Source: Pyropia yezoensis (Eukaryota > Rhodophyta > Bangiophyceae > Bangiales > Bangiaceae). Taken from it: a stretch of DNA of 64,000 nt. Where the stretch lies: the NCBI GenBank assembly GCA_009829735.1, contig CM020620.1, forward strand, positions 29,048,951 through 29,112,950. The letters run 5' to 3'. The position numbers and the translations under genes were made by a program. The first letter of the stretch is position 1. The number at the start of each line of letters is the position of its first letter. Below the pieces are notes generated by a model. It had not been told where the DNA came from. It was given only the letters and a program-made list of their open reading frames with translations, and made no database searches. This document shows, piece by piece, positions 16,396 to 64,000 of the stretch.

Positions 16396-16414
16396 TTGGT
16401 GGAGCAGCAGGGGA
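16396..16414 (+). other. Primer-binding site of element A
   Basis: TTGGTGGAGCAGCAGGGGA directly follows the LTR. It is identical to the site in element E and nearly so to that of B. It is complementary to a tRNA 3' end (CCA). The tRNA was not identified. Confidence 0.75.
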
Positions 16415-16614
16415 CGGGTTTCCGTCACCCTTGTGGTGACGCCGTCTTCGGCCCTGGCACACGGATAGGGATCCGGTCCTTTTCTTGTACTCGTGGTGTT
16501 GCGACCTGATCGATTGTGTTGAGATTTTACCTGTGACTGTGACATACTGTTACTCTCCCCAATCTACCCCCTCGCTCTCTTATTCGTGGTGATCGTTGCG
16601 TCGGTGGACTGATT

Positions 16615-18804
16615 GTGACTACGTCTACCCAAGAGACGGGGAACGTTCAAGATGACGGATCGGCGTCGACGCCGACTCCGGAGGTGACTACGGGAACCGG
16701 GATCGGGAACCCGATCGATAACATTGAGACGCCAATGCTTTCCGGTGCCGGATCGACGTTTGGCACGGCTCGGACGGCAGGAGGCGGGGGCCCGCCTCAA
16801 CTGTCGTCGACCGACCTCACTCCGCCGCCTCCTTCACCAGGGGATTCCCTGATGGCATCATTGGCCCGCATCGAGGCCCGGTTTTCCGGGCTCGACGCCC
16901 GTCAAGATCGGACGGAGGACGCAATGGCAGTGTTGATGTCAACACGGTACACGACGGGACCCCGTCGTGTTCCTCCCACACCGGTACGGTTCGAACCGGC
17001 CGGACTACTTTCGGAGTCCACCAGGGTCAATCCCGGGGTTGCTACTCCTGGACAACCCCCGGACACAATGGGGTATGGGTCCGACTCGTCGGCAGAGTTG
17101 GAACGGAGTCACACGGAGCGATACGCTCGGAGCACCCGAAGCGGAATCCGCGGACACGACCCGGCGGATACGTACGCCGGGGGAGAGTCGGTTCTTGGGG
17201 GAGGGGGTACCCTCTCGCAGTACCCCCACGACGAAGGAGGCCAGGCAACTCAGGTTCCCGAGGTGCCGACGCCTGAAGTACCATCTTCAGTAGTGGAAGC
17301 TATGACCGCGCAGGTAGCTGCGAGCCTACTGAAGCGGATGGAGTCCGATGAGTTCGCTCATCAACTGGCTAAGCGACTGGATATTCAGGACGCTGACACG
17401 GAGATCGTCAACGAAGTCTTCAGGTCGGTACTGACTCCCGAACGTTATCGTTTGGAGGACCGATCCACTGCCGTATCGGAATCGATGCGTACGACCTCGC
17501 ACCGAGCGATTCGCTCTATGCAGACCCTTATGAAGGGAGTCCCTATGTTCGGGGGGCCGAACGGACGCCCGTTGGCAGTCATCGGCTTCTTGACTAGCTT
17601 CAAGGCAGCCGCAGACAAGGCGCTCGTTAACGAGGGGCTGGCCCTGGAGATCCTCCCGTTCTTTGTTGATGAACGGGTGCGAGGCATTCTTCGCCAGGCA
17701 TCCCCGATGCCGGGAATGAGGGTCGCGGCCACCCCCATGGATTACCGTGGGATATTGAAGGAGCTGCTGAGCAGCTACCTCAGTGAGGACAAGTGCGAGG
17801 ACCACTACCGGGCCCTGCGCACTGCCACCGCCCAGTCCTGGGAGGATGAGGAGATGTTTGGACGCCGGATCCAAGAGCTCGACTACGAGCTGGGGAAGCT
17901 CCTCGGAGAAGGGGAGCTACGGGCCATTCTGTTCGCAGGAGTACCCAACTACGTGCGGATATCCGCACGGGGCGCCAACACGGCACGGACGAACTTCAGT
18001 CGACTGATGCATATGTGCAAGTCCCTAGGGGACGCCTACCGGGTTCTACACCCGGAGTGTGCCTTGGCCCCGAAGCCCAAGGGTGAGGGAGGCAAGCCCA
18101 GTCTTACCCCGGTACCGAGGCAAGAGAAGGTGGAACGTAAGGCCGCACCAGTACTGGTGGCGACCGAACATACCCCTATTGGTGAGGATGACCCTCTAGT
18201 CGACCAACAGGGCCACCTGTTGCTACCGGCGACGCTGGTGATTGATGAACATGGTACGGTAGCGTACATCGCCCCGGCTGGAACCCAGCTCCAGGTCAAC
18301 GAAGGAACGGGACGGCGCGTCCCGTATGTGCGGACTACGGGGTACTCCCCGGTGACGGGTAACCCTCACCAACCCTTGCCAACATGGGCGGTGCGCACGG
18401 AGGCACCTCCGCAGATTGCGGGCCGACCCAACCGGTTGGGGGAGTCCATGTTCCGGTTGACCCAAGGACCCAAGGCCTACCAGGGAGCAGGCACTCGGGC
18501 GCCCGAGGGAGGCAACCGTAGCTACGGGGCTACCCCGATGCGAACTCAAGGGGGGACCGGCACGTCCGGGTGTATGTTGTGTGGGGATCCCCAGCACTGG
18601 GTGTCTTCCTGCCCAGTCATCCCCGAGGAGTCTCGGCGGGCAGCGGCGCAACGCAAGGCATCCACCGGGGGGTATCCCGCCCGAGCACCCGGACCCGCAC
18701 CGGGTAGGCAGCCAGCTCCAGGTGGAGTACTGGCCGTCGAGGGGGCACCTCCTCAGCCGGATGTCCCGGCGGACAGCACCCTACCAAGGGCGGGAAACGA
18801 GTAA
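16615..18804 (+). CDS. gag of element A
   Basis: Open stretch of about 729 codons. The N-terminal third is Pro/Thr/Gly-rich and acidic. A capsid-like helical region follows around residues 230-470 (AVIGFLTSFKAAADKALVNE, then ELLSSYLSEDKCEDHYRALR and a METFGRRIQEL-like segment). The C-terminal part carries one CCHC zinc knuckle, CMLCGDPQHWVSSC (C-x2-C-x4-H-x4-C), near residue 650. No early ATG opens the frame, so the true start is uncertain. Pol follows within 10 bases in another frame, as in gypsy elements that express pol by frameshifting. Confidence 0.85.
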   Translation: MTTSTQETGNVQDDGSASTPTPEVTTGTGIGNPIDNIETPMLSGAGSTFGTARTAGGGGPPQLSSTDLTPPPPSPGDSLMASLARIEARFSGLDARQDRTEDAMAVLMSTRYTTGPRRVPPTPVRFEPAGLLSESTRVNPGVATPGQPPDTMGYGSDSSAELERSHTERYARSTRSGIRGHDPADTYAGGESVLGGGGTLSQYPHDEGGQATQVPEVPTPEVPSSVVEAMTAQVAASLLKRMESDEFAHQLAKRLDIQDADTEIVNEVFRSVLTPERYRLEDRSTAVSESMRTTSHRAIRSMQTLMKGVPMFGGPNGRPLAVIGFLTSFKAAADKALVNEGLALEILPFFVDERVRGILRQASPMPGMRVAATPMDYRGILKELLSSYLSEDKCEDHYRALRTATAQSWEDEEMFGRRIQELDYELGKLLGEGELRAILFAGVPNYVRISARGANTARTNFSRLMHMCKSLGDAYRVLHPECALAPKPKGEGGKPSLTPVPRQEKVERKAAPVLVATEHTPIGEDDPLVDQQGHLLLPATLVIDEHGTVAYIAPAGTQLQVNEGTGRRVPYVRTTGYSPVTGNPHQPLPTWAVRTEAPPQIAGRPNRLGESMFRLTQGPKAYQGAGTRAPEGGNRSYGATPMRTQGGTGTSGCMLCGDPQHWVSSCPVIPEESRRAAAQRKASTGGYPARAPGPAPGRQPAPGGVLAVEGAPPQPDVPADSTLPRAGNE

Positions 18805-18812
18805 GAGGAAGG

Positions 18813-21800
18813 TTGACCGGGGGGCGCTGGGGTTACCCAAGCAAACCACCCCGGAGTACCGCGGGGAAAGCCCCACGGAGAGCGCGGTTGAGCCGACGCC
18901 GCATCAACCCCCGGGTACACCTTCCGGCCCCGACGACACGGCGTCAGGGGATTGATGACCAACCTCCAAGGTTGGGAGGAGAGGACGGGAAGCCCCGTCA
19001 CGTTGAACCAGACAAGGGCCCTGTTCAGAATGCCCGAGCTACACCGGATATCGGTGTAGGACATGTGTTGTTTACCTTGGAGAACTTCAAGGTATCAGCC
19101 ACACTGGGGGTTGACCCCCAGTCGACACGATCGTACTACCCTGTACTGGACACAGGGGCTGGACCCAACCTTATCCGGAAGGATACCCTCCCGGACAAGT
19201 GGCTTCCACGAGTCAGAGTGACTCGGGGACCCACCATCAAGGACGCGAATGGTCGACTCATTCGTACGACCGCAGCGATGTCGCTGCAGGTTACCATCGG
19301 GGATCTCACCACGGAAGTTGACTTCCTGGTATGTGAAACGCTATCGGTGCCCTGCATACTGGGGTGCACCTTCATCAACGTTCACGTTGATGCAATCCGG
19401 CCAGGCCGGAGGACCGTCGAGCTTCAAGAAGCCGACGGGACGAAGCGAGGACACGCGGCTATCGTCAGGGACCTGACGCTACAAGGAAGCCACGTTAACG
19501 TGGCTGAGGTGTACGCAAGCGTCGAGCCGAAGACACTTCGGTTGGCCAAGCGAACTCGCTTTGAGCCGTTGTCAGAGACAGTCCTCCCGGTTAACTGCGA
19601 CCTCGCAGGCATCTGCAGAGTCCAGTCCAACCTACGGACGTACAAGCGCCATGGGTTGACCATGGCCAACGGTCTCATAGACCTCCCAGCAGGAGGGTCG
19701 TCCCTCCTAGTGATGGCAAACTACCGCCGTAAGGCAGTCACCCTCCCGAAGGGAACTATCCTCGGGATTGCCGAACTCTACGAAGGAGATATCCTTACCC
19801 CTGATAAGGAAGGTCAAGTGGAACCACTTGAAGTACTGGCGGTCGCCGAGACCACCGAGCGACAGCAACCCGATGACGGGAAGCCTAACCCATCGGCGGC
19901 TCCGGCGGACCTGCCGCCAAAGGACCAAGAGGCCTTGAAGGCACTGGCCGAGGCTGACCTCGACCACTTTCCCCCTTGGGTAGCCGAAGGGGTACGACGG
20001 ATGCTAAGAAAGCATGACGTTATGTGGACAGGCGGGGCCTTGGGGACCATTGGGGCAACCCAACATCGTATAGACCTGGTACCAGGCGCACGACCCGCCC
20101 GCTCACAACCGCACCGAGCGGGACCTATGCAACGAGAGATCGTCGATGCAGAAGTGAAGAGGATGAGTGAAGCTAAGGTGATCCGACCTTCGATGTCGGA
20201 ATGGGGTGCCCCAGTCGTTATTGTGCCGAAGAAGGATCAAACCCCTCGGTTTTGCATCGATTATCGACGCCTCAACTTGGTTACCAAGAAGGACTCATAC
20301 CCTTTACCAAGGATGGATGAATGCATCGACTCCCTGGGGGAGGCTACGGTGTTTACCACCATCGACTGCAATGCCGGATACTGGCAGATCCCGGTGGCGG
20401 ACGAGGATATCCCCAAGACGGCATTCGTCTGTCACAGTGGAGTGTACGAGTTCCTAAGGATGCCCTTCGGACTGTCCAACGCCCCCGCTACCTTCCAGCG
20501 GGCTATCGACATCATACTGTCGGGGGTGAAGTGGCGTAACTGCCTAGTGTACCTCGATGACGTCATCGTCTTCTCGCGTAACATGGATGACCATGTACAA
20601 CATGTTGACGAGGTACTCACCCTCTTGAGGAACGCCGGGGTAACCCTGCGTGTGAAGAAGTGCGCCTTCTTCCAACAGACGGTCGAGTATCTGGGCCACC
20701 AGATAACCCCTGGTAAACTAGGGGTACTCGAAGCCAATACCCGGGCACTCCGGGATGCCCGGTTCCCTAACACCCAGACGCAGCTCAAGAGCTTCCTGGG
20801 AATGTGCAATGTATACCGACGGTTCGTCAAGGACTTCGCTCGGATAGCTAAACCGTTAACGGTTCTTACGAGCAGTACCTTACCCAAGGTACTCCAACCC
20901 CCTTCGCCTAGCGAAGAGGAGGCATTCGAGTCGCTGAAGCGAGCCCTACTATCCCCACCCGTCCTTGCGTTACCGCACAGACGGGGGACCTTCGTCATCG
21001 ATGTCGATGCATGCGATACACAAGTGGGATGCACCCTGTTACAGGGAGAGACGTTGACAGGTACCGACAACGTTATCCCGGACCTACGTCCGGTAGGGTA
21101 CTTCAGCCGGACACTCAACCCGGCTGAGCGGAACTATAGTGCCACCGAGCGTGAATGCCTCGGAGTTATATGGGCAGTGCAACTGCTCCGTCCATACCTG
21201 GAGGGCTCCAGGTTCATCGTGAGGTCCGACCACGAACCCCTACGATGGCTCCTCAACCTTGGTGACAAGGATTCCGATAGCCATGGGAGGCTTGCCCGAT
21301 GGAGGCTGAAGATGGCCGAGCACGACTACCGCACGGTGTATAAGCCTGGGTCAACCCACCACCTCGGAGACGCGTTGTCTCGACTCGACACCCCGAGCGG
21401 GGATACCCGCCCGGTGGACGAGGACATCCCGGTAGTACCGGTGTGCATGGTGGGTAATGCTACCCAGGGTATGGCTGACCATACCATGGCACACCTTGCG
21501 TGCCCATTGACCCTCGCGGACTTCCGCGAGGCACAGGCCAACGACGATGACTGTAGACGTCATCGTGCTAACCTCCTGGCCGGTACGGCCGGCATCTTCT
21601 CCGAGAACGAAGACGGACTCATATACCGGCGGGCACCCGCCGATGGACGACATCAAGTCGTGGTTCCCGTGTCCTTACGGCAAGCCGTCATGAAACGAGA
21701 ACATGAGAACCCTACAGCCGGACACCCGGGGGGTTCACGTATGTTCGCAGCAATGCGAAGGTTCTTCTACTGGCCAGCAATGGCCGTCGACGTGGTCGAC

Positions 21801-22979
21801 CACGTAAGGGGATGCCACCCCTGTGCACGTAACCGCATGAGTCTACATAGGCGGGCGTCTGCCATGAAGCTATTCCCACCTGATGGGCCCAACGAGCAAG
21901 TCGCTATCGACATACTCGGGCCACTTCCGATAACGGAAGAAGGGAACAGGTACATCCTGGTCATGTCTGACCGCTTCACTAAGCTGTCAAGAGCGGCAGC
22001 CATCCCGAATGATACGGCATACACGATCATGAACGCAGTGGTTGACCACTGGATCAGTGCATACGGAGTCATGAAGCAACTCCTCTCCGATAACGGAGCA
22101 AACCTTACGTCGGCATTCTGCACTAAGGTCCTGGGCATGTTCGGTATCGAACCACGTCGGGCATCCGACTACCACCCGCAGTCCAACGGGCAGGTGGAGC
22201 GGTTCAACCGCACCATCGTAAAGATGCTTCAGTGCTACGTGGCCGAGCACACGAACACTTGGGACAGGCTTCTGTCCGTACTCACCCTGGCATACAATGC
22301 CAGGCCACATCGGAGCACAAACATCGCTCCGCTGGAGTGGGTCATGCCACTAGGCGTCGGTAACCTGACGCTGCCACCAGGCAGGTGCACTCGGTATGAT
22401 ACACCGAAAGGCCGACCCGCCGAACGCATCCACCTAGCTTGGTTGGCCAAGCTATCGTGGATGATTCCTAAGCTCAAGGGTGCCCTTGACAGAACACAAC
22501 TTCGGTATAAGAAGAACTTCGACGCCCGACTACGGGTGCGCAACGCAACCCTGGTAACAGGTGACTGGGTCTATATCAGACACCAGAAGTTCCGAGGGAA
22601 CAAGCTTATGCAACCGGTCAAGGGACCGTACCAGATCCTCCACAGAGATGACCACTCTGTTATCTTACACTCCGATACGGAGATTCAACGCATCAGCATG
22701 AATGACGTCACACCTGCTCCGATGCCGGAACAGCCTCAGCCGGTACCGGCTGGGTTGCTACATGAAGCTCCTACAACCCACCGGTCAGATGACCCGGTGG
22801 GACCGGATGGGATTCCATACCAAGTAGAGAGCGTGGTCGGACACACCGACCCGGACCTACCAGGACCCTGGTACGTCAAGGTTATGTGGGTCGGATACGA
22901 CTCACCCACCTGGGAACAGGCGGCAAATATACCCCGCCAACTCCTCATGCCGTACATGAGGCGACGACGCCTACTGTAA
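18813..22979 (+). CDS. pol of element A (PR-RT-RNase H-IN-chromodomain)
   Basis: Polyprotein of about 1388 residues that looks whole. The protease box VLDTGAGPNLI is near residue 112. RT covers about 420-620, with FCIDYRRLN and the catalytic YLDDVIVFS near 579. RNase H starts with FVIDVDACDTQ near 726. Integrase has an HHCC zinc domain (HENPTAGHPGG...CHPCARNR, about 960-1005) and a DDE core (IDILGPLP, LSDNGANL, HPQSNGQVERFNR, about 1030-1130). The C-terminus ends in a chromodomain-like module (YQVESVVGHTD...YVKVMWVGYDSPTWEQAAN, about 1335-1385), a mark of chromoviruses. Its stop faces the stop of the antisense ORF across about 480 bases of palindrome-bearing DNA. Confidence 0.97.
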   Translation: MTGGRWGYPSKPPRSTAGKAPRRARLSRRRINPRVHLPAPTTRRQGIDDQPPRLGGEDGKPRHVEPDKGPVQNARATPDIGVGHVLFTLENFKVSATLGVDPQSTRSYYPVLDTGAGPNLIRKDTLPDKWLPRVRVTRGPTIKDANGRLIRTTAAMSLQVTIGDLTTEVDFLVCETLSVPCILGCTFINVHVDAIRPGRRTVELQEADGTKRGHAAIVRDLTLQGSHVNVAEVYASVEPKTLRLAKRTRFEPLSETVLPVNCDLAGICRVQSNLRTYKRHGLTMANGLIDLPAGGSSLLVMANYRRKAVTLPKGTILGIAELYEGDILTPDKEGQVEPLEVLAVAETTERQQPDDGKPNPSAAPADLPPKDQEALKALAEADLDHFPPWVAEGVRRMLRKHDVMWTGGALGTIGATQHRIDLVPGARPARSQPHRAGPMQREIVDAEVKRMSEAKVIRPSMSEWGAPVVIVPKKDQTPRFCIDYRRLNLVTKKDSYPLPRMDECIDSLGEATVFTTIDCNAGYWQIPVADEDIPKTAFVCHSGVYEFLRMPFGLSNAPATFQRAIDIILSGVKWRNCLVYLDDVIVFSRNMDDHVQHVDEVLTLLRNAGVTLRVKKCAFFQQTVEYLGHQITPGKLGVLEANTRALRDARFPNTQTQLKSFLGMCNVYRRFVKDFARIAKPLTVLTSSTLPKVLQPPSPSEEEAFESLKRALLSPPVLALPHRRGTFVIDVDACDTQVGCTLLQGETLTGTDNVIPDLRPVGYFSRTLNPAERNYSATERECLGVIWAVQLLRPYLEGSRFIVRSDHEPLRWLLNLGDKDSDSHGRLARWRLKMAEHDYRTVYKPGSTHHLGDALSRLDTPSGDTRPVDEDIPVVPVCMVGNATQGMADHTMAHLACPLTLADFREAQANDDDCRRHRANLLAGTAGIFSENEDGLIYRRAPADGRHQVVVPVSLRQAVMKREHENPTAGHPGGSRMFAAMRRFFYWPAMAVDVVDHVRGCHPCARNRMSLHRRASAMKLFPPDGPNEQVAIDILGPLPITEEGNRYILVMSDRFTKLSRAAAIPNDTAYTIMNAVVDHWISAYGVMKQLLSDNGANLTSAFCTKVLGMFGIEPRRASDYHPQSNGQVERFNRTIVKMLQCYVAEHTNTWDRLLSVLTLAYNARPHRSTNIAPLEWVMPLGVGNLTLPPGRCTRYDTPKGRPAERIHLAWLAKLSWMIPKLKGALDRTQLRYKKNFDARLRVRNATLVTGDWVYIRHQKFRGNKLMQPVKGPYQILHRDDHSVILHSDTEIQRISMNDVTPAPMPEQPQPVPAGLLHEAPTTHRSDDPVGPDGIPYQVESVVGHTDPDLPGPWYVKVMWVGYDSPTWEQAANIPRQLLMPYMRRRRLL

Positions 22980-23057
22980 CAACCCAACCAACACCGACTT
23001 CGGCTGTTGGGGGGTGAGGCTTATACCTACTAAGTAGGGTGTGACGTGGTTACGGCA

Positions 23058-23147
23058 GACTTAGGTTTCTAAGTCAAATCAGACTTAGGTTTCTAAGTCG
23101 AACCAAGCTTAGGTAACTAAGTAGAGCTAAGCTTAGGTAACTAAGTA
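23058..23147. repeat. Cluster of four short palindromes after pol (element A)
   Basis: Two units of GACTTAGGTTTCTAAGTC (23058-23075, 23082-23099) and two of AAGCTTAGGTAACTAAGTA (23105-23123, 23129-23147). Each is nearly self-complementary around CTTAG...CTAAG. The same cluster is kept in element C at 59967-60055. It lies between the convergent pol and antisense ORFs. A terminator, insulator or binding-site array is possible. Confidence 0.85.
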
Positions 23148-23223
23148 AAATCTGAACCTTAATAAGTTAACTTAAAGGTAAAGGCTAACTCCGATAATAT
23201 CGAAGTAACTAGGGAGCTTACAC

Positions 23224-23275
23224 GGGAGGATGACCTCCCCAAGCCAAGACACCAAGTGAGGGAGGATGACCTCCC
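23224..23275. repeat. Two GGGAGGATGACCTCCC hairpins (element A)
   Basis: Identical 16-base inverted repeats at 23224-23239 and 23260-23275, just downstream of the antisense ORF stop. Element C has equivalents with compensated stems (59838-59853 and 59874-59889). They could fold as stem-loops in the 3' end of the antisense transcript. Confidence 0.7.
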
Positions 23276-23457
23276 CAAGCATGAACCTACCGGAAGAAGT
23301 TGGACGGGAGGCAAGGCACCACTGAGCCAGAAGGGGTACTCCCCAGGGCAGCAAACAGAGGCAAGCAATGCCCCCAAAGGGGTTGAGTTTATACTCACTA
23401 CTACCCGGCTACCATAAGGGTTGCCGGGGCCCTCTCCCGCACAAACAATAGCACTCC

Positions 23458-25905
23458 TCAGTGGGTAGACCCACTGCCCGAGGGAGGCCACTCACGCGTA
23501 AGCGCGTAGACCTCCGTGCTCCACCGGTCGGCAACGTCACGACGGTCGACCACCCGAGTTACCTCGGTGCATAGCTGGACGAGGGTGCTGCGGCCAGCCT
23601 CCACGTCCTCCAGAGCTTTCTGGAGGCGGTCCAGCACGCCACCGAAGCAACGCGCTGACCCAACCAGCGCAGCACCTGGGGGGATATCCCCCCAGCTAAC
23701 AGAGAGACCCCCACGCATTGCGCGGGTAACAAGGGCGTCAACGCCCTCATACCAGAGACGGGGACCCCCGTCATGTAGGACAGGGGCGGGAGGTGGCACT
23801 GGCGCAGCCAGAGGAGCCACAGGAGCCGACACGGCTACCACCGGAGCCGGTGGCACCTGATACGAGGCCCGGTAGGACCCTACCGAAGGGGCTCCACCGT
23901 AACCACGGCGGTACTCCGCCCGACGACGGGACACCTCACGCTCCCCACCCACAGAGCCCCACTCTCGGGGACGACGGCCAACCGCCGCCGGCATCGGGTT
24001 ACCGAACCACGGAGCAAGGACCTGAAGAGGGTCATGGATAACCATGCGAATACCCAGGTCAGCAACAGCCTCGGTGGATGCCCACCCATGGCAACTGGGC
24101 TCACCAGGCTGAGTACGCCGGACACGCAACGAGTGACGAGGCAAGGGGGAAGCCCCAGCCTGCGGGTCCCGGTACGGGGGAAGGGCCAACACCCCAGCCC
24201 AGTTCACGGCATCGTGAACAGCCAGCAGGGCTTCGAACTCCCGGGCCAACCCGGTCTTGGCGGCTATCAGATCCACGCCCAACTGCGCGATGTGCCGACG
24301 GACACCCGTCGGAAGATGAAACAGGCGCCCCTGCCGACGGACGGACAGCTAGAAGGATGAAGCCTGCCCGAGGGTAACCTCAAGGGTGAAGGTACCCTGC
24401 AACGGGTGGACCGGTCGCGAGGCCAACACACTCCCGAAGTAGCGAAGACAGGAGCCGGTGTCAAACCGGAAAGCAGGGGCGGGTTCCCACCCCTCCTGCC
24501 ATAGCGGCGGGCGCACGGGAGTGTATACCGGAGCACGACCGTTGCCGGTCTGCAACGCACACGTTATATCCGTGCGGAACGCATCCGCCATGACACCATG
24601 GTTACGTCGCCAACTCGACGCCGACTTCAACCCCGCCATGGGCGGGTAGGGAGCCGTCAACGACAGATACGGGGGTACCCCCGGGTAGTAGTCAAAGTCG
24701 GGATACCGACCGGTACTGTCCACCGTCTCCCCAAACGCAACCGGCTCCGCCGCCGCCGCAATCCCCCGAGCACTAGCCGGGTAGTCAATCTCCCGCGGCA
24801 ACGCGGGGGCAATCAGGTCGCAGACCCCGAAGTTGGGGTCGAGGTAGACCTCACCCCGTCCCACCCGGGTGCGCCAGAGCTGCGCATGCCGGTCGTCCGG
24901 CTGACTCAGGATCCAATGATGTTCCACCCGGACCGCGTTCGGCTGGTTGACCAGCCGCACCAACTCCCGCTCCCAGCTCGGGTCCACCTTAACGCGGCGG
25001 GAGGACTCTCCACGGGGATGCACCAGGTGGAAGTCCACCCGCATACGCCCATCGGACTCCATCGACTCTTGCACCGTGAGGCCTCGAACCCGAGCCACCA
25101 AGTCAAACACCGACATGGCGGGTTGACCCGCCGCCACGGCGACGCCGCCACCCAACGGGGCAACCCGGGCAGGACCAGGAAGAATCGGGGGCGCCGGGGG
25201 ACGCACCACCGGCAGAGGGGCCGACGTCGGAGATGGACGAGGCCGAGGAGGAAGAAGAAGGGCGGGCGCCCGCACGGAGTAACTCCCGGTGTCAACCGCC
25301 ATGGGAGAAGGAGCGTCTTGACCGCTCGACACCCGCGGCACCGCAGGTATGGTACCGGCGCCGGCACCACCCGTCGGCGTAGCCCCCGCCTCGGAAGGGG
25401 AAGGCACTTGGACAGCCTCCGGAGCCGGAGCCCCGGCCGTGCGGACACCCGCACCGTCTTGACCCGCCGCACCGGGTGACGCACCGCCACCACCACCCGC
25501 GTCAACGTCGGGACCGCCTCGAGGAGTCACCGCCCGGACACCCGGACCACCTTGACCAGCCGGAGTCGGCTGCGGGTCGCCACCTCCGCCGCAGGGCGGA
25601 CCATCTTGAGGTAGCTGCGGTGAGCCGGCACCGGCACCAGGCTCCATCCGGGCAGCCGGCAGAGAGGGGGTAGAAGCCGCCACGCGCGGTTGACCGCCGG
25701 GTTGACCGCCGGCCGACGGCACCGTCGTGCCGCTGCACACGGACGACAGTCCTCCGGCCGACAGACGGACGGACACCGCAGGCCCGTCGTCGTCAGACGA
25801 GCTCACCCCGTAACGCGCGGCGTCGGGACCGACAGGCGCGTCGTCCTCCATCTCCTCCCCGATCAGGAGGTCTTCCTCCTCTCCAAGCACCTGGGGATAG
25901 GACAT
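23458..25905 (-). pseudogene. Antisense ORF of element A, about one break
   Basis: Opposite-strand coding region between pol and the 3' LTR. It starts MSYPQVLGEEEDLL at 25905 and ends near the pol side with WPPSGSGSTH. Its counterpart in element C (57285-59654) is whole, about 789 residues. The first 250 residues are Gly/Pro/Ala-rich and acidic near the start. The remaining 500 are globular-looking, with conserved blocks such as VARVRGLTVQESMESDGRMR and GKLKSASSWRR-like segments. No known domain, signal peptide or membrane segment was recognised. The function is unknown. Confidence 0.85.
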
Positions 25906-26490
25906 GATAACGGGTGCAGAGTCCCCCGCGCCCACAAGCCGTCGACGGCTACGACCCGGTACGGTGGGATAACCGGGACGAGCCAGAGAAGCGCAGGCAC
26001 CCGCGCTTATGACCACAAACGGCCACGAGCAGCGCCACAAACACGCGGGTCGACCCACGCCGCACGGGGCTACGAACGCGCCCCACCCAGGCACCTGGGC
26101 GGGACGGGGCCACCCCCACACATGGGGTAAGCAAGGGGGGTCACCCCCAACCGCCCCCACGCAACGCGGGCAGCCCTCGCCCCCCACTCAATCGTCCACA
26201 CGAGAGAGACCCCCCTACCACCAGGCACCTGGTGGCGGATCCGCTTGCACCACCCCTCGGAAAGGGGGGTCGTGAACAAAAACCCGCATCGGGAAATTAA
26301 CGGTCCGGAAAACGGATCGTGTGTGTACCACACAAAGGGGGGCACCCCCCTCGGACAACCTCGAAAAGGGGTGTCTGTCGCGACGGGGCGCAAAGCCCCA
26401 CCCGACGGGTAAACAGTCACGCGACCCACTTACATTCGGTAACCCGAATGCAACTCGACCCGAGGACGGGCCGAATCTAAGGGGGGGATA
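25906..26490 (-). promoter_or_regulatory. Leader and putative promoter of the antisense ORF (element A)
   Basis: Region between the 3' LTR and the antisense ORF start. On the minus strand it holds a TATA-like GTCATAAGC (26005-26014), which matches GTTATAAGC in element C at the same distance from the ATG. It also has inverted repeats built on CAGGTGCCTG (26218-26235 as CCACCAGGCACCTGGTGG, and around 26086-26103). The position suggests that the antisense ORF is transcribed from its own promoter rather than from the 5' LTR. Confidence 0.5.
26479..26490 (+). other. Polypurine tract of element A
   Basis: AAGGGGGGGATA lies immediately before the 3' LTR, in the position where plus-strand synthesis is primed in this family. 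Confidence 0.8.
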
Positions 26491-26852
26491 TGTAGCAATA
26501 TGGTTGTCCGTATTGTGACCCTAATATCGGGGGGGCTACTTCTAATCCTTAACTTCAATTTGAGAGTCCGTACTGGTCACGGTATCTATAAGTTATGTAT
26601 GACCAGAGGGACTTGCATCTTGGGGTGGAGGGTAGTTAGTAGTGTCTCCGAGGGTTTATAACGAGGGGGCCGGTGGCGAATCCACCGCCGGCCAAGGTAG
26701 AACAACAAACCCCTCCCATTTGGGCTCCCATCTTGGTCCCGTGGCTTGCGCTCCAAGGACAGCAACCTTGGCCTCCCGGTGACGTCGGTGCCGATCCCCC
26801 TTGGTGAGTGCTCCCTGAGAGTGGACGTGCGACGGATTCCTATTGTGCTACA
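26491..26852 (+). repeat. 3' LTR of element A
   Basis: 362 bp, same borders as the 5' LTR; CGGCG target duplication follows. Confidence 0.97.
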
Positions 26853-56693: not shown

Positions 56694-57284
56694 TATCCCC
56701 CCCTTAGATTCGGCCCGTTCTCGGGTCGAGTTCCATTCGGGTTACCGAATGTAAGTGGGTCGCGTGACCGTTTACCCGTCGGGGGGGGCTTTGCGCCCCG
56801 TCGCGACAGACACCCCTTTTCGAGGATGTCTGAGGGGGGTGCCCCCCTTTGTGTGGTACACACACGATCCGTTTTCCGGACCGTTAGATTCCCGATGCGG
56901 GTGTCTGTTCACGACCCCCCTTTCCGAGGGGTGGTGCAAGCGGATCCGCCACCAGGTGCCTGGTGGTAGGGGGGCCCCTCTCGTGTGGACGATTGAGTGG
57001 GGGGCGGGGGCTGCCTGCGTTACGTGGGGGCGGTTGGGGGTGACCCCCCCCTCGATTACCCCGTGTGGGGGGGGCGTGGCCCCGCCCCAGGTGCCTGGCG
57101 GGAGCGCCCTCGTAGGTCGGCTGGCGCGGGTCGTCCCGCGCTTCCCTATCGCTGGTGCCCAGCTGTGTGGTTATAAGCGCGGGTGCCCGCGCTTCCCTGG
57201 CTCGTCCGTGCGAGCGTTCTCTGTACCGGGTCGAGCCGGCCTCGGCCTTTCTGCACGGGGCGCCCCTGCTACCCCGGTTGCACC
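56694..57284 (+). promoter_or_regulatory. Leader and putative promoter of the antisense ORF (element C)
   Basis: 591 bases between the LTR and the ATG. It contains TTATAAG (57171-57177), 108 bases before the ATG and conserved in position in A. It also contains the inverted repeat CCACCAGGTGCCTGGTGG (56949-56966) and a second CCAGGTGCCTGG (about 57088-57099). These E-box-like dyads are kept in A. It includes the polypurine tract of the sense strand next to the LTR. Confidence 0.5.
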
Positions 57285-59654
57285 ATGTCGGACCCCCAGG
57301 TACTCGGGGGTGAGGACGACCTCCTGCCTGAGAAGGGGGAAGAGGTGATGGTGGACGACGTTCCCGTCTCCGCCACCGCCGCCGAGTGCTTCCTCGCGAG
57401 CTCGTCCGAGGACGAGGACGACCGGGTGACCGTTCGTGTGGCTCCGGACGGTGCTCCGGGCGGTTTGTCGTCCGTGTGCAGCGGCACGACGGCTCCGTCG
57501 GGTGGCGGGCAACCGCGGGTAGCTGCTGCGTCTACCCCTACTCCTCCGGCGGCCCGGATGGCTTCTGTCGCCGGTGCCGGCGCGGCTCAACCTCAAGACG
57601 GCGTCGCCGGCGTGTCGGGCGGTTATGGTGGCACCCCGACCGGGACGGTGGGTCAAGACGGCGCGGGTGCCCACCCGGGCGGTTCATCCGCGGCTGCGGG
57701 TGGCGGGTCTACCCTTGCTGCCCCTGAGGTGCCCCCGTCGGGCTCTGGTGCCGGCGTTGCTCTGCCCGCGGTGCCGCGGGCGTCTGGCGGTCAAGGTGGG
57801 TCTACACCGATGGCAGTGGACTCCGGTAGTTACTCCGGGCGGGCGCCCGTCCTTCTTCTTCCTCCTCGGCCGCGTGCGACTCCGGCGCCGACCCCTCTTC
57901 CGGTGGGGCATCCCCCGGCCCCCCCTATTCTTCCTGGTCCTGCCCGGGTTGCCTCGTTGGGTTGCGGCGTCGCCGTGGCGGCGGGTCAGCCCGCCATGTC
58001 GATGTTCGACTTGGTGGCTCGGGTTCGAGGCCTGACTGTGCAAGAGTCAATGGAGTCCGATGGGCGGATGCGGGTGGACTTCCACCTGCCCCATCCCCGT
58101 GGAGAGTCCTCCCGGCGCGTCAAGGTGGACCCGAGTTGGGAGCGGGAGTTGGTGCGGCTGGTCAACCAGCCGAACGCGGTGCGAGTGGAACACCATTGGA
58201 TCCTGAGTCAGCCGGATGACCGGCATGCGCAGCTCTGGCGCACCCGGGTGGGACGGGGTGAGGTCTACCTCGACCCCGCCTTCGGGGTATGCGACCTGAT
58301 TGCTCCCGCGTTGCCGCGGGAGGTTGACTACCCGGCTAGTGCTCGGGGGATTGCGGCGGCGGCGGAGCCGGTTGCGTTTGGGGAGACGGTGAGCAGTACC
58401 GGTCGGTATCCCGACTTTGACTACTACCCGGGGGTACCCCCGTATCTGTCGTTGGCTGCTCCCTACCCGCCTATGGCGGGTTTGAAGTCGGCGTCGAGCT
58501 GGCGGCGTAACCATGGTGTCATGGCGGATGCGTTCCGCACCGATATAACGTGTGCGTTGCAGACCGGCAACGGTCGTGCGCCTGTATACACTCCCGTGCG
58601 CCCGCCTCTGTGGCAGGAGGGGTGGGAACCCGCCCCTGCTTTCCGGTTTGACACCGGCCCTTGTCTCCGATACTTCGGGAGTGTGTTGGCCTCCCGGCCG
58701 GTCCACCCGTTGCAAGGTACCTTTACCCTTGAGGTTGCCCTCGGGCAGGCTTCCTCCTTCCTGCTGTCCGTCCGTCGACAGGGGCGCCTGTTCCATCTTC
58801 AGACAGGTGTCCGTCGGCACATCGCGCAGTTGGGCGTGGACCTGATCGCTGCCCGAACCGGGTTGGCCCGGGAGTTCGAAGCCCTGCTGGCTGTTCACGA
58901 TGCCGTGAACTGGGCTGGGGTGTTGGCCCTTCCCCCGTACCGGGACCCGCAGGCTGGGGCTACCCCCTTGCCTCGTCACTCGTTGCGTATCCGGCGTACT
59001 CAGCCGGGTGAGCCTAGTTGCCATGGGTGGGCGTCCACCGAGGCCGTTCCTGACCTGGGTATTCCCATGGTTATCCATGACCCTCTTCAGGTCCTTGCCC
59101 CGTGGTTCGGTAACCCGATACCGGCGGCGGTTGGCCGTCGTCCCCGAGAGTGGGGCTCTGCGGGTGGGGAACGTGAGGTGTCCCGTCATCGGGCGGAGCC
59201 CCGCCGGGGTTACGGTGGAGCCCCTTCGGTAGGGTCCTACCGGGCCTTGTATCAGGTGCCACCGGCTCCGGTGGTAGCCGTGTCGGCTCCTGTGGCTCCT
59301 CAGGCTGCGCCAGTGTCACCTCCCGCCCCTGTCATGAATGACGGGGGTCCCCGTCTCTGGTATGAAGGCGTTGACGCCCTAGTTACCCGCGCAATGCGGG
59401 AGGGTCTCGCTGTTAGCTGGGGGGATATCCCCCCAGGTGCTGCGCTGGTTGGGTCAGCGCGTTGCTTCGGTGGCGTGCTTGACCGCCTCCAGAAAGCTCT
59501 GGAGGACGTGGAGGCTGGCCGCAGCACCCTCGTCCAGCTATGCACCGAGGTAACTCGGGTGATCGACCGTCGTGACATTGCCGACCGGTGGAGCACGGAG
59601 GTATACGCGCTTACGCGTGAGTGGCCTCCCTCGGGCAGTGGGTCTACCCACTGA
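57285..59654 (+). CDS. Antisense ORF protein of the A/C family, whole (789 aa)
   Basis: Starts MSDPQVLGGEDDLLPEKGEE in good context (GCACCATGT). Residues 1-240 are acidic, then Gly/Pro/Ala-rich and probably disordered. Residues 250-560 look globular (MFDLVARVRGLTVQESMESD, RRVKVDPSWERELVRLVNQP, DFDYYPGVPPYLSL, SASSWRRNHGVMADAFRTDI, FRFDTGPCLRYFGSVLASRP). After a Pro/Ala linker the C-terminus is helical (CFGGVLDRLQKALEDVEAGR, LVQLCTEVTRVIDRRDIADR). No known domain, signal peptide or membrane segment is seen. It lies opposite in strand to pol, tail to tail. In about 350 bases compared with element A near 58118-58480, most differing codons are synonymous. This suggests the protein is selected. 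It is comparable in position to the antisense ORFs of plant Tat-lineage gypsy elements, but I see no sequence link. Confidence 0.85.
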   Translation: MSDPQVLGGEDDLLPEKGEEVMVDDVPVSATAAECFLASSSEDEDDRVTVRVAPDGAPGGLSSVCSGTTAPSGGGQPRVAAASTPTPPAARMASVAGAGAAQPQDGVAGVSGGYGGTPTGTVGQDGAGAHPGGSSAAAGGGSTLAAPEVPPSGSGAGVALPAVPRASGGQGGSTPMAVDSGSYSGRAPVLLLPPRPRATPAPTPLPVGHPPAPPILPGPARVASLGCGVAVAAGQPAMSMFDLVARVRGLTVQESMESDGRMRVDFHLPHPRGESSRRVKVDPSWERELVRLVNQPNAVRVEHHWILSQPDDRHAQLWRTRVGRGEVYLDPAFGVCDLIAPALPREVDYPASARGIAAAAEPVAFGETVSSTGRYPDFDYYPGVPPYLSLAAPYPPMAGLKSASSWRRNHGVMADAFRTDITCALQTGNGRAPVYTPVRPPLWQEGWEPAPAFRFDTGPCLRYFGSVLASRPVHPLQGTFTLEVALGQASSFLLSVRRQGRLFHLQTGVRRHIAQLGVDLIAARTGLAREFEALLAVHDAVNWAGVLALPPYRDPQAGATPLPRHSLRIRRTQPGEPSCHGWASTEAVPDLGIPMVIHDPLQVLAPWFGNPIPAAVGRRPREWGSAGGEREVSRHRAEPRRGYGGAPSVGSYRALYQVPPAPVVAVSAPVAPQAAPVSPPAPVMNDGGPRLWYEGVDALVTRAMREGLAVSWGDIPPGAALVGSARCFGGVLDRLQKALEDVEAGRSTLVQLCTEVTRVIDRRDIADRWSTEVYALTREWPPSGSGSTH

Positions 59655-60133: not shown

Positions 60134-63100
60134 TTACAGTAGGCGTCGTCGCCTCATGTAAGGCATGAGTAGTTGGCGGGGTATATTCGCCGCCTGTTCC
60201 CAGGTGGGTGAGTCGTATCCGACCCACATAACCTTGACGTACCAGGGTCCTGGTAGGTCCGGGTCGGTGTGTCCGACCACGCTCTCTACTTGGTATGGGA
60301 TCCCATCCGGTCCCACCGGGTCATCTGACCGGTGGGTTGTAAGAGCTTCATGTAGCAACCCAGCCGGTACCGGCTGAGGCTGTTCCGGCTTCGGAGCAGG
60401 TGTGACATCATTCACACTGATGCGTTGGATCTCCGTATCGGAGTGTAAGATAACAGAGTGGTCATCTCTGTGGAGAATCTGGTACGGTCCCTTGACCGGT
60501 TGCATGAGCTTATTGCCCCGGAACTTCTGGTGTCTGATGTAGACCCAGTCACCTGTTATCAGGGTAGCGTTGCGCACCCGTAGTCGGGCGTCGAAGTTCT
60601 TCTTATATCGAAGTTGTGTTCTGTCAAGGGCACCCTTGAGCTTAGGAATCATCCACGACAGCTTGGCCAACCAAGCTAGGTGGATACGTTCGGCCGGTCG
60701 GCCTTTCGGTGTATCATACCGAGTGCACCTGCCTGGTGGCAGCGTCAGGTTACCGACGCCTAGTGGCATGACCCACTCCAGCGGAGCGATGTTCGTGCTC
60801 CGATGTGGCCTGGCATTGTATGCCAGGGTGAGTACGGACAGAAGCCTGTCCCAAGTGTTCGTGTGCTCGGCCACGTAGCACTGTAGCATCTTGACGATGG
60901 TGCGGTTGAACCGCTCCACCTGCCCGTTGGTTTGCGGGTGGTAGTCGGATGCCCGACGTGGTTCGATACCGAACATGCCCAGGACCTTAGTGCAGAATGC
61001 TGACGTAAGGTTTGCTCCGTTGTCGGAGAGGAGTTGCTTCATGACTCCGTATGCACTGATCCAGTGGTCAACCACTGCGTTCATGATGGTGTATGCCGTA
61101 TCATTCGGGATGGCTGCCGCTCGTGACAGCTTAGTGAAGCGGTTAGACATGACCAGGATGTACCTGTTCCCTTCTTCCGTTACCGGAAGTGGCCCGAGTA
61201 TATCGATAGCGACCTGCTCGTTGGGCCGATCGGGTGGGAATAGCTTCATGGCAGACGCATGCCTATGTAGACTCATGCGGTTACGTGCACAGGGGTGGCA
61301 TCCCCTTACGTGGTCGACCACGTCGACGGCCATTGCTGGCCAGTAGAAGAACCTTCGCATTGCTGCGAACATACGTGAACCCCCCGGGTGTCCGGCTGTG
61401 GGGTTCTCGTGTTCTCGTTCCATGACGGCTTGCCGTAAGGACACGGGAACCACGACTTGATGTCGTCCATCGGCGGGTGCCCGCCGGTATATGAGTCCGT
61501 CTTCGTTCTCGGAGAAGATGCCGGCCGTACCGGCCAGGAAGTTAGCGCGATGACGTTTACAGTCGTCGTCATTGGCTTGTGCCTCGCGGAAGTCCGCGAG
61601 GGATAGTGGGCATGCTCGGTGTGCCATGGTATGGTCAACCATACCTTGGGTAGCGTTACCCACCATGCAGACCGGTACCACCGGGATGTCCTCGTCCACC
61701 GGGCGGGTATCCCCGCTCGGGGTGTCGAGTCGAGACAATGCGTCTCCGAGATGGTGGGTTGACCCAGCCTTATACACGGTACGGTAGTCGTGCTCGGCCA
61801 TTTTTGGCCTCCATCGGGCTAGCCTCCCATGGCTATCGGAATCCTTGTCACCAAGGTTGAGGAGCCATCGTAGGGGTTCGTGGTCGGACCTCACGATGAA
61901 CCTGGAGCCCTCCAGGTATGGACGGAGCAGTTGCACTGCCCATATAACTCCGAGGCATTCACGCTCGGTGGCACTATAGTTACGCTCAGCCGGGTTGAGT
62001 GTCCGGCTGAAGTATCCTACCGGACGTAGGTCCGGGATAACGTTATCGGTACCGATCAACGTCTCCCCCTGTAGCAGGGTGCATCCCACTTGGGTGTCGC
62101 ACGCATCGACATCGATGACGAAGGTACCCCGTCGGTGCGGTAACGCAAGGACGGGTGGGGATAGTAGGGCTCGCTTCAGCGACTCGAATGCCTCCTCTTC
62201 GCTAGGCGAAGGGGGTTGGAGTACCTTGGGCAGGGTACTGCTCGTAAGAACCGTTAACGGTTTAGCTATCCGAGCGAAGTCCTTGACGAACCGTCGGTAT
62301 ACATTGCACATTCCCAGGAAGCTTTTGAGCTGCGTCTGGGTGTTAGGGAACCGGGCATCCCGGAGTGCCCGGGTACTGGCTTCGAGTACCCCTAGTTTAC
62401 CAGGGGTTATCTGGTGGCCCAGATACTCGACCGTCTGTTGGAAGAAGGCGCACTTCTTCAGACGCAGGGTTACCCCGGCGTTCCTCAAGAGGGTGAGTAC
62501 CTCGTCAACATGTTGCACATGGTCATCCATGTTACGCGAGAAGACGATGACGTCATCGAGGTACACTAGGCAGTTACGCCACTTCACCCCCGACAGTATA
62601 ATGTCGATAGCCCGCTGGAATGTAGCGGGGGCATTGGACAATCCGAAGGGCATCCTTAGGAACTCGTACACTCCACTGTGACAGACGAATGCCGTCTTGG
62701 GGATATCCTCGTCCGCCACCGGGATCTGCCAGTATCCGGCATTGCAGTCGATGGTGGTAAACACCGTAGCTTCCCCCAGGGAGTCGATGCATTCATCCAT
62801 CCTTGGTAAAGGGTATGAGTCCTTCTTGGTAACCAAGTTGAGGCGTCGATAATCGATGCAAAACCGAGGGGTTTGATCCTTCTTCGGTACAATAACGACT
62901 GGGGCACCCCACTCCGACATCGAAGGTCGGATCACCTTCGCTTCACTCATCCTCTTCACTTCTCCATCAACGATCTCTCGTTGCATAGGTCCCGCTCGGT
63001 GCGGTTGTGACCGGGCGGGGCGTGCGCCTGGTACCAGGTCAATACGATGTTGGGTTGCCCCAATGGTACCCAGGGCTCCGCCTGTCCACATGACGTCATG

Positions 63101-64000
63101 CTTTCTTAACATCCGTCGTACCCCTTCGGCTACGGAAGAAGGAAGGTGGTCGAGGTCAGCCTCGGCCAGTGCCTTCAATGCTTCTTGGTCCTTCGGCGGA
63201 ATATCCGCCGGTAATGATGGTCGACTAGGCTTCCCGTCATCGGGTTGCTGTTGCTCGGTGGTCTCGGCGACCGCCAGCACCTCAAGTGGGTCCACTTGAC
63301 CTTCCTTGTCAGGGGTAAGGATATCTCCTTCGTAGAGCTCGGCAATCCCGAGGATAGTTCCCTTCGGGAGGGTGACTGCCTTACGGCGATAGTTCGCCAT
63401 CACTAGGAGGGACGACCCTCCTGATGGGAGGTCTATGAGACCGTTGGCCATGGTCAACCCATGGCGCTTGTACGTCCGCAAGTTGGACTTGACTCTACAG
63501 ATGCCTGCGAGGTCACAGTTAACCGGGAGGACTGTCTCCGACAACGGCTCAAAGCGAGTTCGCTTTGCCAACCGAAGTGTCTTCGGCTCGACACTTGCGT
63601 ACACCTCAGCCACGTTAACGTGGCTCCCTTGTAGCGTCAGGTCCCTGACGATAGCCGTGTGTCCTCGCTTCGTCCCGTCGGCTTCTTGAAGCTCGACGGT
63701 CCTCCGGCCTGGCCGGATTGCATCAACGTGAACGTTGATGAAGGTGCACCCCAGTATGCAGGGCACCGATAGGGTCTCACACACCAGGAAGTCGACTTCC
63801 GTAGTGAGTTCCCCGATGGTCACCCGCAGCGACATCGCTGCAGTCGTACGAATGAGGCGACCATTCGCGTCCTTGATGGTGGGTCCCCGAGTCACTCTGA
63901 CTCGCGGAAGCCACTTGTCCGGGAGGGTATCCTTCCGGATAAGGTTGGGTCCAGCCCCTGTATCCAGTACAGGGTAGTACGATCGTGTCGACTGGGGGTC
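60134..64000 (-). CDS. pol of element C, partial at the window edge
   Basis: Minus-strand polyprotein, open from the window edge to the stop at 60134. It begins in the protease (LDTGAGPNLI near 63960) and runs through RT (YLDDVIVFS near 62560), RNase H, integrase (LSDNGANL near 61015) and the chromodomain-like end (KVMWVGYDSPTWEQ). It is nearly identical in protein sequence to pol of A and looks whole as far as seen. Confidence 0.96.
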   Translation of the reverse strand, partial: DPQSTRSYYPVLDTGAGPNLIRKDTLPDKWLPRVRVTRGPTIKDANGRLIRTTAAMSLRVTIGELTTEVDFLVCETLSVPCILGCTFINVHVDAIRPGRRTVELQEADGTKRGHTAIVRDLTLQGSHVNVAEVYASVEPKTLRLAKRTRFEPLSETVLPVNCDLAGICRVKSNLRTYKRHGLTMANGLIDLPSGGSSLLVMANYRRKAVTLPKGTILGIAELYEGDILTPDKEGQVDPLEVLAVAETTEQQQPDDGKPSRPSLPADIPPKDQEALKALAEADLDHLPSSVAEGVRRMLRKHDVMWTGGALGTIGATQHRIDLVPGARPARSQPHRAGPMQREIVDGEVKRMSEAKVIRPSMSEWGAPVVIVPKKDQTPRFCIDYRRLNLVTKKDSYPLPRMDECIDSLGEATVFTTIDCNAGYWQIPVADEDIPKTAFVCHSGVYEFLRMPFGLSNAPATFQRAIDIILSGVKWRNCLVYLDDVIVFSRNMDDHVQHVDEVLTLLRNAGVTLRLKKCAFFQQTVEYLGHQITPGKLGVLEASTRALRDARFPNTQTQLKSFLGMCNVYRRFVKDFARIAKPLTVLTSSTLPKVLQPPSPSEEEAFESLKRALLSPPVLALPHRRGTFVIDVDACDTQVGCTLLQGETLIGTDNVIPDLRPVGYFSRTLNPAERNYSATERECLGVIWAVQLLRPYLEGSRFIVRSDHEPLRWLLNLGDKDSDSHGRLARWRPKMAEHDYRTVYKAGSTHHLGDALSRLDTPSGDTRPVDEDIPVVPVCMVGNATQGMVDHTMAHRACPLSLADFREAQANDDDCKRHRANFLAGTAGIFSENEDGLIYRRAPADGRHQVVVPVSLRQAVMEREHENPTAGHPGGSRMFAAMRRFFYWPAMAVDVVDHVRGCHPCARNRMSLHRHASAMKLFPPDRPNEQVAIDILGPLPVTEEGNRYILVMSNRFTKLSRAAAIPNDTAYTIMNAVVDHWISAYGVMKQLLSDNGANLTSAFCTKVLGMFGIEPRRASDYHPQTNGQVERFNRTIVKMLQCYVAEHTNTWDRLLSVLTLAYNARPHRSTNIAPLEWVMPLGVGNLTLPPGRCTRYDTPKGRPAERIHLAWLAKLSWMIPKLKGALDRTQLRYKKNFDARLRVRNATLITGDWVYIRHQKFRGNKLMQPVKGPYQILHRDDHSVILHSDTEIQRISVNDVTPAPKPEQPQPVPAGLLHEALTTHRSDDPVGPDGIPYQVESVVGHTDPDLPGPWYVKVMWVGYDSPTWEQAANIPRQLLMPYMRRRRLL

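What the first reader, a model, noticed from the sequence alone, without database searches (positions are those of the whole stretch)
57285..59654. Conserved extra protein encoded antisense to pol in the A/C retrotransposon family
Both members in the window carry a ~789-residue ORF on the strand opposite gag-pol, between pol and the 3' LTR (23458-25905 in A, 57285-59654 in C). The protein matches no family I know. In a roughly 350-base stretch compared by eye, about eight codon differences are synonymous and about four change the residue, so it seems to be under constraint. Antisense ORFs of unknown role are known in plant Tat-lineage gypsy elements (for example Grande, Retand). One in an algal chromodomain element would be a new occurrence.
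Basis: partly seen in the sequence, partly recalled or inferred. Interest (0 to 1): 0.78.

Follow-up and report, generated by a model that had tools for sequence, protein, structure and literature searches.

The report
Conserved antisense gene in nori retrotransposon
An abundant jumping element in the edible red seaweed nori carries, on the strand opposite its normal genes, an extra protein gene that natural selection has clearly kept working for a long time; the protein belongs to no known family, and its job, probably controlling the element itself, is still to be tested.

Summary
Contig sizes identify the host as the red alga Pyropia (Neopyropia) yezoensis. The ORF at 57285-59654 (+), antisense to gag-pol between pol and the 3' LTR, is real; copy A's version, however, has an in-frame stop. 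Of 30 copies fetched, 21 are intact. Three results show constraint on the protein. (1) Pairwise dN/dS is 0.37 in this frame; four of the other five frames exceed 1, and the fifth (0.45) is full of stops. (2) Variants shared between copies are strongly synonymous (74 S, 64 N, 0 stop; 42, 93 and 3 expected), private ones nearly neutral. (3) Three further families, one near synonymous saturation, keep a full-length open frame downstream of pol on the opposite strand, with dN/dS 0.27-0.34 (pol 0.07-0.14). Relatives 43-59% identical are hypothetical proteins of Pyropia vietnamensis; Pfam, PHROGs and PDB gave no usable match. A TATA-like block lies about 110 bases upstream, absent from the most divergent family. 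Antisense extra ORFs are known in plant Retand/Grande, fungal Boty and HTLV; this is a new protein family in a red-algal gypsy element with a probable chromodomain. Most likely role (inferred, no RNA or protein data): a nuclear regulator of the element's own expression or silencing.

The parts
57285..59654 (+). Antisense extra ORF (aORF) of copy C: ATG to stop, 789 aa; acidic N-terminus (net charge -13 over residues 1-60), Ala/Gly/Pro/Ser-rich linker 61-237, conserved central region (~300-620), second linker, C-terminal part helical in the model
57172..57206 (+). Putative antisense core promoter block: YATAAG plus a 34-nt run (57173-57206) identical in the divergent family L040, about 110 bases before the ATG, inside the element and outside the LTR
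   Evidence: conservation only, no transcript seen; absent from L039
56331..56693 (-). 3' LTR of copy C (TGTAGCA...TGCTACA ends)
60134..63895 (-). pol of copy C (RT, RNase H, integrase, probable chromodomain); homology runs on beyond the window edge
16034..26852 (+). Copy A, complete element with 362-nt LTRs (16034-16395 and 26491-26852) and a 5-base target duplication CGGCG
16615..18804 (+). gag of copy A (CX2CX4HX4C knuckle in the translation; weak Pfam zf-CCHC_2, E 0.08)
18813..22979 (+). pol of copy A, 1388 aa (protease, RT, RNase H, integrase, probable chromodomain at the C-terminus)
23458..25905 (-). aORF of copy A, 815 codons before the final stop, one of them an in-frame stop (broken copy)
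25991..26011 (-). TATA-like block of copy A, same motif as in C; no third match in the window with up to 2 mismatches

Best explanation
The ORF is a real gene of the retrotransposon. It has its own promoter between the 3' LTR and the ORF, is transcribed against gag-pol, and encodes a nuclear accessory protein that acts on the element itself: it controls the element's transcription or counters host silencing. Shown here: the protein is under purifying selection in transposing lineages; it lies downstream of pol on the opposite strand, with full-length frames, in divergent families; it evolves faster than pol; and a TATA-like block precedes it in most families read. Inferred: that the block is a promoter, that an antisense mRNA exists, that the protein is nuclear, and that its acidic N-terminus and conserved core act like the activation and binding parts of a regulator.
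For: Coding constraint: dN/dS 0.373 in the ORF frame over 28 copies, against 1.31, 1.42, 1.16, 0.45 and 1.51 in the other frames; the 0.45 frame has 585 stops and shares its third positions with the ORF. Shared variants S/N/stop 74/64/0 against 41.9/92.9/3.2 expected, reached by 0 of 2000 simulations; private variants 110/197/7 against 94.8/211.1/8.1 expected, reached by 64 of 2000; Fisher P 2.7e-4. Codon-model omega 0.45 over 21 intact copies; pol 0.18 over 10 stop-free copies. Further families: dN/dS 0.27-0.34 in 9 of the 10 pairs (the tenth, the recent pair L009/L013, gives 0.73); the pairs represent four lineages and are not independent; dS reaches 1.6, all frames open. Orientation: 16 of 44 RT hits on contig C3 have a listed aORF match on the opposite strand at the expected distance, 0 on the same strand, 0.1 expected at random; a lower bound, as the lists are truncated. 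Homologues in Pyropia vietnamensis and other assemblies. Promoter-like block. N-terminus net charge -13, no hydrophobic window above 1.6. Precedent, from passages read: Grande's antisense gene23 product is nuclear and its transcription starts upstream of gene23; the Retand TRP28 domain is predicted to bind DNA.
Against: No transcript, protein, localisation or binding data exist here. Two AlphaFold2 attempts gave no usable fold (mean pLDDT 36.0 and 29.5), so the regulatory role rests on architecture and analogy. Only one bipartite-like basic stretch was found, in one of four full-length proteins scanned, so nuclear import is not shown. The most divergent family, L039, lacks the TATA-like block. 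By hand calculation a 34-base identical run in 600 columns at 78% identity has a chance of about 3%, so the promoter footprint is only suggestive. Private variants of the ORF also show a slight synonymous excess, so they are not perfectly neutral.
Confidence: 0.5

Rival explanations
1. The ORF is a by-product of GC-rich, A-poor strand composition (a chance antisense ORF), or the shadow of a sense ORF on the gag-pol strand.
For: GC is 67.5% in the ORF, a 422-codon sense frame overlaps it in C, and the region is strongly AT-skewed.
Against: dN/dS is low in the antisense frame and 1.16 in that sense frame, which holds 189 stops over 28 copies. The sense frame is 171 and 167 codons in L039 and L040 (longest of any sense frame there 210 and 241) while the antisense frame stays full length. 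Homologous proteins occur in another species.
Confidence: 0.01
2. The antisense RNA, not the protein, is the working product (for example double-stranded RNA or transcriptional interference).
For: Convergent transcription would give overlapping RNAs; antisense RNA functions are discussed for plant elements and retroviruses (abstract of PMC10186651).
Against: Selection acts on amino acids: excess synonymous changes and no stop among 138 shared variants; indels between families leave the frame open. An RNA role could exist in addition.
Confidence: 0.05
3. The protein is a structural or particle component or chaperone (a second gag-like or env-like product) rather than a regulator.
For: ORFs between pol and the 3' LTR in sense orientation are often called env-like; the fold is unknown.
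Against: No membrane-like segment in any of the 7 aORF-family proteins scanned (five full-length copies, two of them close relatives, plus P0004 and P0007). Antisense expression would uncouple it from gag-pol dosage (inference). gag already has a knuckle motif.
Confidence: 0.17
4. Host gene captured by the element, kept for a cargo or host-like function.
For: No family is known, so a lineage-specific host origin cannot be excluded; GC3 0.69 is slightly above pol 0.65.
Against: No match stood out as a stand-alone host gene, but matches were not inspected one by one, the lists are truncated and the search is blind to introns; so this is weak.
Confidence: 0.1
5. The protein helps integration or nuclear import of the pre-integration complex.
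For: Proposed for plant antisense ORFs in the review section read.
Against: No integrase-, transposase- or Transposase_28-like match; the element has its own integrase with a probable chromodomain.
Confidence: 0.12

Closest known systems
Retand-lineage antisense ORF with Transposase_28 (PF04195), flowering plants (Vicient 2025, PMC11963269; abstract, results section 11 part 1 and discussion read)
   Different: No Transposase_28 match here; Retand is non-chromovirus and the domain is reported only from flowering plants; this element is red-algal with a probable chromodomain
Maize Grande gene23 (described in the review PMC7264820: abstract, first third of the text and sections 7 and 8 read; primary paper not read)
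   Same: Antisense, promoter in the region upstream of the ORF, 3' position; product reported nuclear
Fungal Boty antisense ORF (Botrytis; mentioned in PMC7264820)
   Same: LTR element outside plants with a 3' antisense ORF
   Different: Host kingdom; sequence not compared
HTLV-1 HBZ (antisense bZIP factor; PMC10186651, abstract and passages read)
   Same: Antisense gene at the 3' end, N-terminal activation part, acts on the element's own transcription
   Different: HBZ has a bZIP and an LTR promoter; no bZIP match here and the putative promoter lies outside the LTR; whether the acidic N-terminus activates is unknown; analogy only
VANC anti-silencing proteins of Arabidopsis VANDAL transposons (PMC5735166, abstract and discussion read)
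   Same: Element-borne accessory protein with conserved and highly variable regions that differs between related families; possible functional analogue
   Different: DNA transposons (recalled); no target motif or methylation effect known here

Membership tests
LTR retrotransposon, Ty3/gypsy | Two LTRs with TG...CA ends and a target duplication | tested here: met
   Copy A: 362-nt LTRs, TGTAGCA...TGCTACA, flanking CGGCG
LTR retrotransposon, Ty3/gypsy | pol order PR-RT-RH-INT | tested here: met
   Pfam order in the 1388-aa pol; the protease match (E 4e-5, 24.4 bits) is below its cut-off of 28.2
Chromovirus | Chromodomain at the integrase C-terminus | tested here: inconclusive
   PF00385 E 0.019, 15.3 bits against a cut-off of 25.1, right position, in both A and C tails; RT phylogeny not run
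Antisense 3' extra ORF (aORF-3R) | ORF between pol and 3' LTR on the opposite strand | tested here: met
   Copies C and A; L040 with both LTR edges; L039 and L041 downstream of pol, LTR edges incomplete or not fetched
Antisense 3' extra ORF (aORF-3R) | Present in most copies of the family | tested here: inconclusive
   16 of 44 pol hits on C3 as a lower bound from truncated lists
Antisense 3' extra ORF (aORF-3R) | Conservation like that of other element proteins | tested here: met
   dN/dS about 0.3, but weaker constraint than pol at about 0.1
Retand antisense family | Transposase_28 domain PF04195 | tested here: not met
   No match in the 8 members of A2 at E up to 10, nor in P0011-P0013, nor in P0001 at E up to 1
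Retand antisense family | Additional RNase H (aRH) between RH and INT | tested here: inconclusive
   Only RT_RNaseH-type matches in pol at E up to 1; no aRH-specific model was run
HBZ-like antisense bZIP | bZIP domain | tested here: not met
   No bZIP match listed (HMMER's filters drop most weak matches)
HBZ-like antisense regulator | Antisense transcript from the 3' end and effect on LTR transcription | not testable with these tools
   No RNA data held
VANC-like anti-silencing protein | Binds own element and removes silent marks | not testable with these tools
   Needs ChIP and methylome data

The most novel reading that the evidence does not exclude
Founding member of a new protein family, so far seen by name only in Bangiales red algae: a fast-evolving, element-encoded anti-silencing or activator protein made from a dedicated internal antisense promoter. 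It would specifically recognise its own element family and would have helped this family to reach very high numbers in the nori genome.
Probability: 0.25. Interest if true: 0.78.

Novelty: new variant of a known kind. Interest (0 to 1): 0.57.

Why it matters
In the papers I read, antisense genes of LTR retrotransposons come mainly from flowering plants, with one fungal example and the T-lymphotropic retroviruses, and a plant survey raises the question whether such extra ORFs have any function (PMC6317226, passages). Here well over a hundred young copies (133 scored pol matches), further divergent families and a second species allow a clean codon test, and it shows that the protein is maintained. 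No sequence relation to the known ones was found by domain search, so this looks like an independent occurrence in a lineage far from land plants, and it offers a tractable case for asking what such proteins do. It also concerns the predominant repeat class of a crop seaweed's genome, 48% of which is predicted to be repeats (PMC7423979, passage).

Tried and rejected
Fold inference: two AlphaFold2 jobs gave mean pLDDT 36.0 and 29.5; no fold search was run because matches would be meaningless. Only about 60 C-terminal residues had block means of 70-88.

Relatives in viral and prokaryotic contigs: none found with P0001 in genome contigs and P0004 in viral contigs, searches that reach close relatives only; the alignment form was not usable.

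A green-algal TGTAA poly(A) signal after the stop looked attractive in C, but copy A and six of the other 20 copies aligned read TATAA there, so I dropped it.

Lysine poverty as an anti-degradation feature: 1-4 lysines per ~800 residues, but base composition alone predicts only 6.6-7.8; kept as a note only.

Even copy A, which has the gene, is not in the aORF lists.

Full report
Where it is. The window is G000:C3:29048951-29112950 of a 107.5 Mb genome in 11 contigs. The three large contigs are 43.59, 34.33 and 29.39 Mb. The published Pyropia yezoensis assembly has scaffolds of 43.6, 34.3 and 29.4 Mbp, equated with its three chromosomes, and 48% repeats with LTR retrotransposons predominant (PMC7423979; abstract and passages read). 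I take the host to be this red alga.

The observation. Copy C (minus strand) has its 3' LTR at 56331-56693, pol on the minus strand ending at 60134, and between them, on the plus strand, an ORF from ATG 57285 to stop 59654, 789 aa. Copy A (16034-26852, plus strand, 362-nt LTRs, target duplication CGGCG) has gag, pol and the same antisense gene at 23458-25905, but with one in-frame stop.

Copies. A DNA search scored 40 full-length copies at 95-100% identity (1,124 candidates in the first look). I fetched 30 of the 40: 28 align over the 2,370 bases without indel, 21 of 30 are intact from ATG to stop, 7 carry an internal stop or have lost the final stop, and 2 are frameshifted. In the 20 of these loci where pol was also read, the ORF is intact in 15 and a 3,762-nt stretch of pol is ungapped and stop-free in 9. 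A protein search scored 55 matches, 44 of them without an internal stop. These samples are biased to close and complete copies because the query is the ORF itself. A piece of pol (RT to RNase H) gave 133 scored matches, 98-100% identical (4,292 candidates), so the family is large and young.

Is the protein selected? Pairwise Nei-Gojobori over 28 copies gives dN/dS 0.373 in the ORF frame and 1.31, 1.42, 1.16, 0.45 and 1.51 in the other five; the 0.45 frame shares third positions with the ORF and has 585 stops, so it is not coding. A copy decays neutrally after insertion, so variants shared by several copies should show selection and private ones less so. This is what is seen with real copies only, at columns with two letters whose codons differ at that site alone. 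Shared: 74 synonymous, 64 nonsynonymous, 0 stops, against 41.9, 92.9 and 3.2 expected (0 of 2000 simulations reach it). Private: 110, 197 and 7, against 94.8, 211.1 and 8.1 expected (64 of 2000 reach it, so a slight synonymous excess remains). Fisher P 2.7e-4. pol, as comparison over 15 copies, gives 96/19/0 shared and 150/175/6 private; there the private variants too are clearly enriched in synonymous changes (92.6 expected, 0 of 2000), so with fewer copies 'private' does not mean neutral. A codon model gives omega 0.45 for 21 intact copies, and 0.18 for 10 stop-free pol copies. Constraint is strongest at residues 401-500 (ratio 0.11) and 1-80 (0.22), and weakest in the linkers 81-237 (0.69) and 631-690 (0.79).

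Further families. With homologues as queries, more divergent matches appear. All three have a full-length open frame (815, 817 and 838 codons from ATG) on the strand opposite pol, ending 400-480 bases from the pol stop. Both LTR edges were seen for L040 only; one edge for L039; L041 was not fetched that far. Against copy C the protein identities are 51.7% (L039, over residues 172-781), 60.8% (L040) and 81.7% (L041), while pol is 85.9, 94.6 and 98.0% identical to copy A's pol over the 820-1126 residues held. dN/dS in the ORF is 0.27-0.34 in nine of ten pairs and 0.73 in the recent pair L009/L013; pol gives 0.07-0.14, and 0.26 for the recent pair; dS reaches 1.6. The pairs stand for four lineages and are not independent. 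The sense frame that overlaps the gene in C (422 codons) is 171 and 167 codons in L039 and L040. So the antisense gene has been maintained to near synonymous saturation, with about three times the dN/dS of pol.

Place and strand. On contig C3, 16 of 44 pol matches have a listed antisense match at the expected distance, 0 of 44 have one on the same strand, and random placement gives 0.1 (44 of the 133 matches lie on C3). The lists are truncated, so 16 is a lower bound. Three other gypsy pol copies in the window (2-2919, 11228-14728, 52265-54904) have no match to the antisense protein beside them.

Relatives elsewhere. In the 5.8-billion-protein collection, three searches returned 16 relatives besides the window's own gene (in each only about 8,000 best candidates were scored). 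All nine with an organism name are hypothetical proteins of Pyropia vietnamensis (Bangiales), mostly 43-59% identical to the C protein over the parts aligned. The other seven are unnamed contigs; two of these (P0011, P0012) are 97-99% identical to copies in this genome, and another (P0013) is at most 49% identical to anything scored here. No relative was found in prokaryote contigs with P0001 or in viral contigs with P0004. Pfam: none, but for one of eight members touching DUF6214 at E 0.014. PHROGs: best E 0.27. PDB: one chance-level match, E 0.86.

Anatomy. Residues 1-60 carry net charge -13 and 61-237 are 66% Pro/Gly/Ala/Ser; the part best conserved in the alignments is about 300-620; the last ~90 residues are helical in the model, with block pLDDT 49-88, in an otherwise unusable prediction. 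No hydrophobic window above 1.6 in seven aORF-family proteins. About 110 bases before the ATG, in the element but outside the LTR, lies YATAAGCGCGGGTG...; YATAAG is kept in 20 of 21 copies aligned (L020 differs), and the block is the longest identical run (34) between C and L040, but it is absent from L039. By hand calculation such a run has about a 3% chance at 78% identity, so it is a suggestive footprint.

How it most likely works. Inference from anatomy and precedent: a separate antisense mRNA is made from this block, translated, and the product acts in the nucleus on its own element. Precedents read: Grande gene23 is transcribed from a promoter upstream of it and its product is nuclear; the Retand antisense domain is predicted to bind DNA; both papers propose regulation (PMC7264820 sections 7 and 8, PMC11963269 section 11 part 1 and discussion). 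Faster evolution than pol would fit a protein that meets host defences or family-specific targets, as argued for the VANC anti-silencing proteins (PMC5735166 abstract and discussion). None of this was tested.

Known or new. The kind (antisense extra ORF between pol and 3' LTR) is known. The protein family, the host lineage (red alga) and a gypsy element with a probable chromodomain are new as far as searched: no paper on Pyropia antisense ORFs appeared in the searches 'Pyropia, retrotransposon, antisense' (2 papers listed, neither on this), 'red alga, LTR retrotransposon, Porphyra, Gypsy' (13 papers, listing only, apart from passages of one) and 'Pyropia yezoensis, retrotransposon, LTR, Gypsy' (15 of 3,176 listed). 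The library lacks most subscription papers. I recall, from no call, that a plant survey of about 2011 saw extra ORFs of chromoviruses only on the 5' side.

Limits. Copies and families were sampled by similarity; the expected counts assume context-matched mutation on one real copy; the fold, transcript and function are unknown.

Noticed in passing
G000:C2:9880067, 9883556, 9887045, 9890534: Four aORF matches in the same orientation spaced exactly 3,489 bases, too short to hold pol: looks like a tandem array of a 3' module.
   Followed up: no
L009 versus L041 (window 57285-59654 equivalents): Mosaic divergence: dS 0.67-0.91 in the N-terminal part of the antisense gene but 0.03 in the C-terminal part; in several pairs the ORF's dS is two to three times that of pol. 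Suggests recombination of 3' modules between families.
   Followed up: partly
57285-59654: The protein has only 4 lysines in 789 residues (1-4 in four families), 15-56% of what its codon-position composition predicts.
   Followed up: partly
G000:C2:9532685 (+) and 9542978 (-): Two 99% matches to the divergent P0012 family face each other about 10 kb apart, apparently too close for two complete elements; only the left one was fetched in part (L039).
   Followed up: no
37669-41307 (-): Single 1212-aa ORF with glycyl-tRNA synthetase alpha and beta subunits in one chain (Pfam E 4e-121 and 3e-163); a bacterial-type enzyme, probably organellar (recalled).
   Followed up: no
51869-55576 (-), 2-2919 (-), 11228-14728 (-): Three other gypsy pol copies, 28-44% identical to the A pol over the aligned pieces; the first has a clear chromodomain (E 3e-12). 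No match to the antisense protein beside them.
   Followed up: partly
47147-47693: G-rich short direct repeats in a GC-rich stretch.
   Followed up: no
8051-8410: Direct repeat of 170 bases, 91% identical, spaced 190.
   Followed up: no
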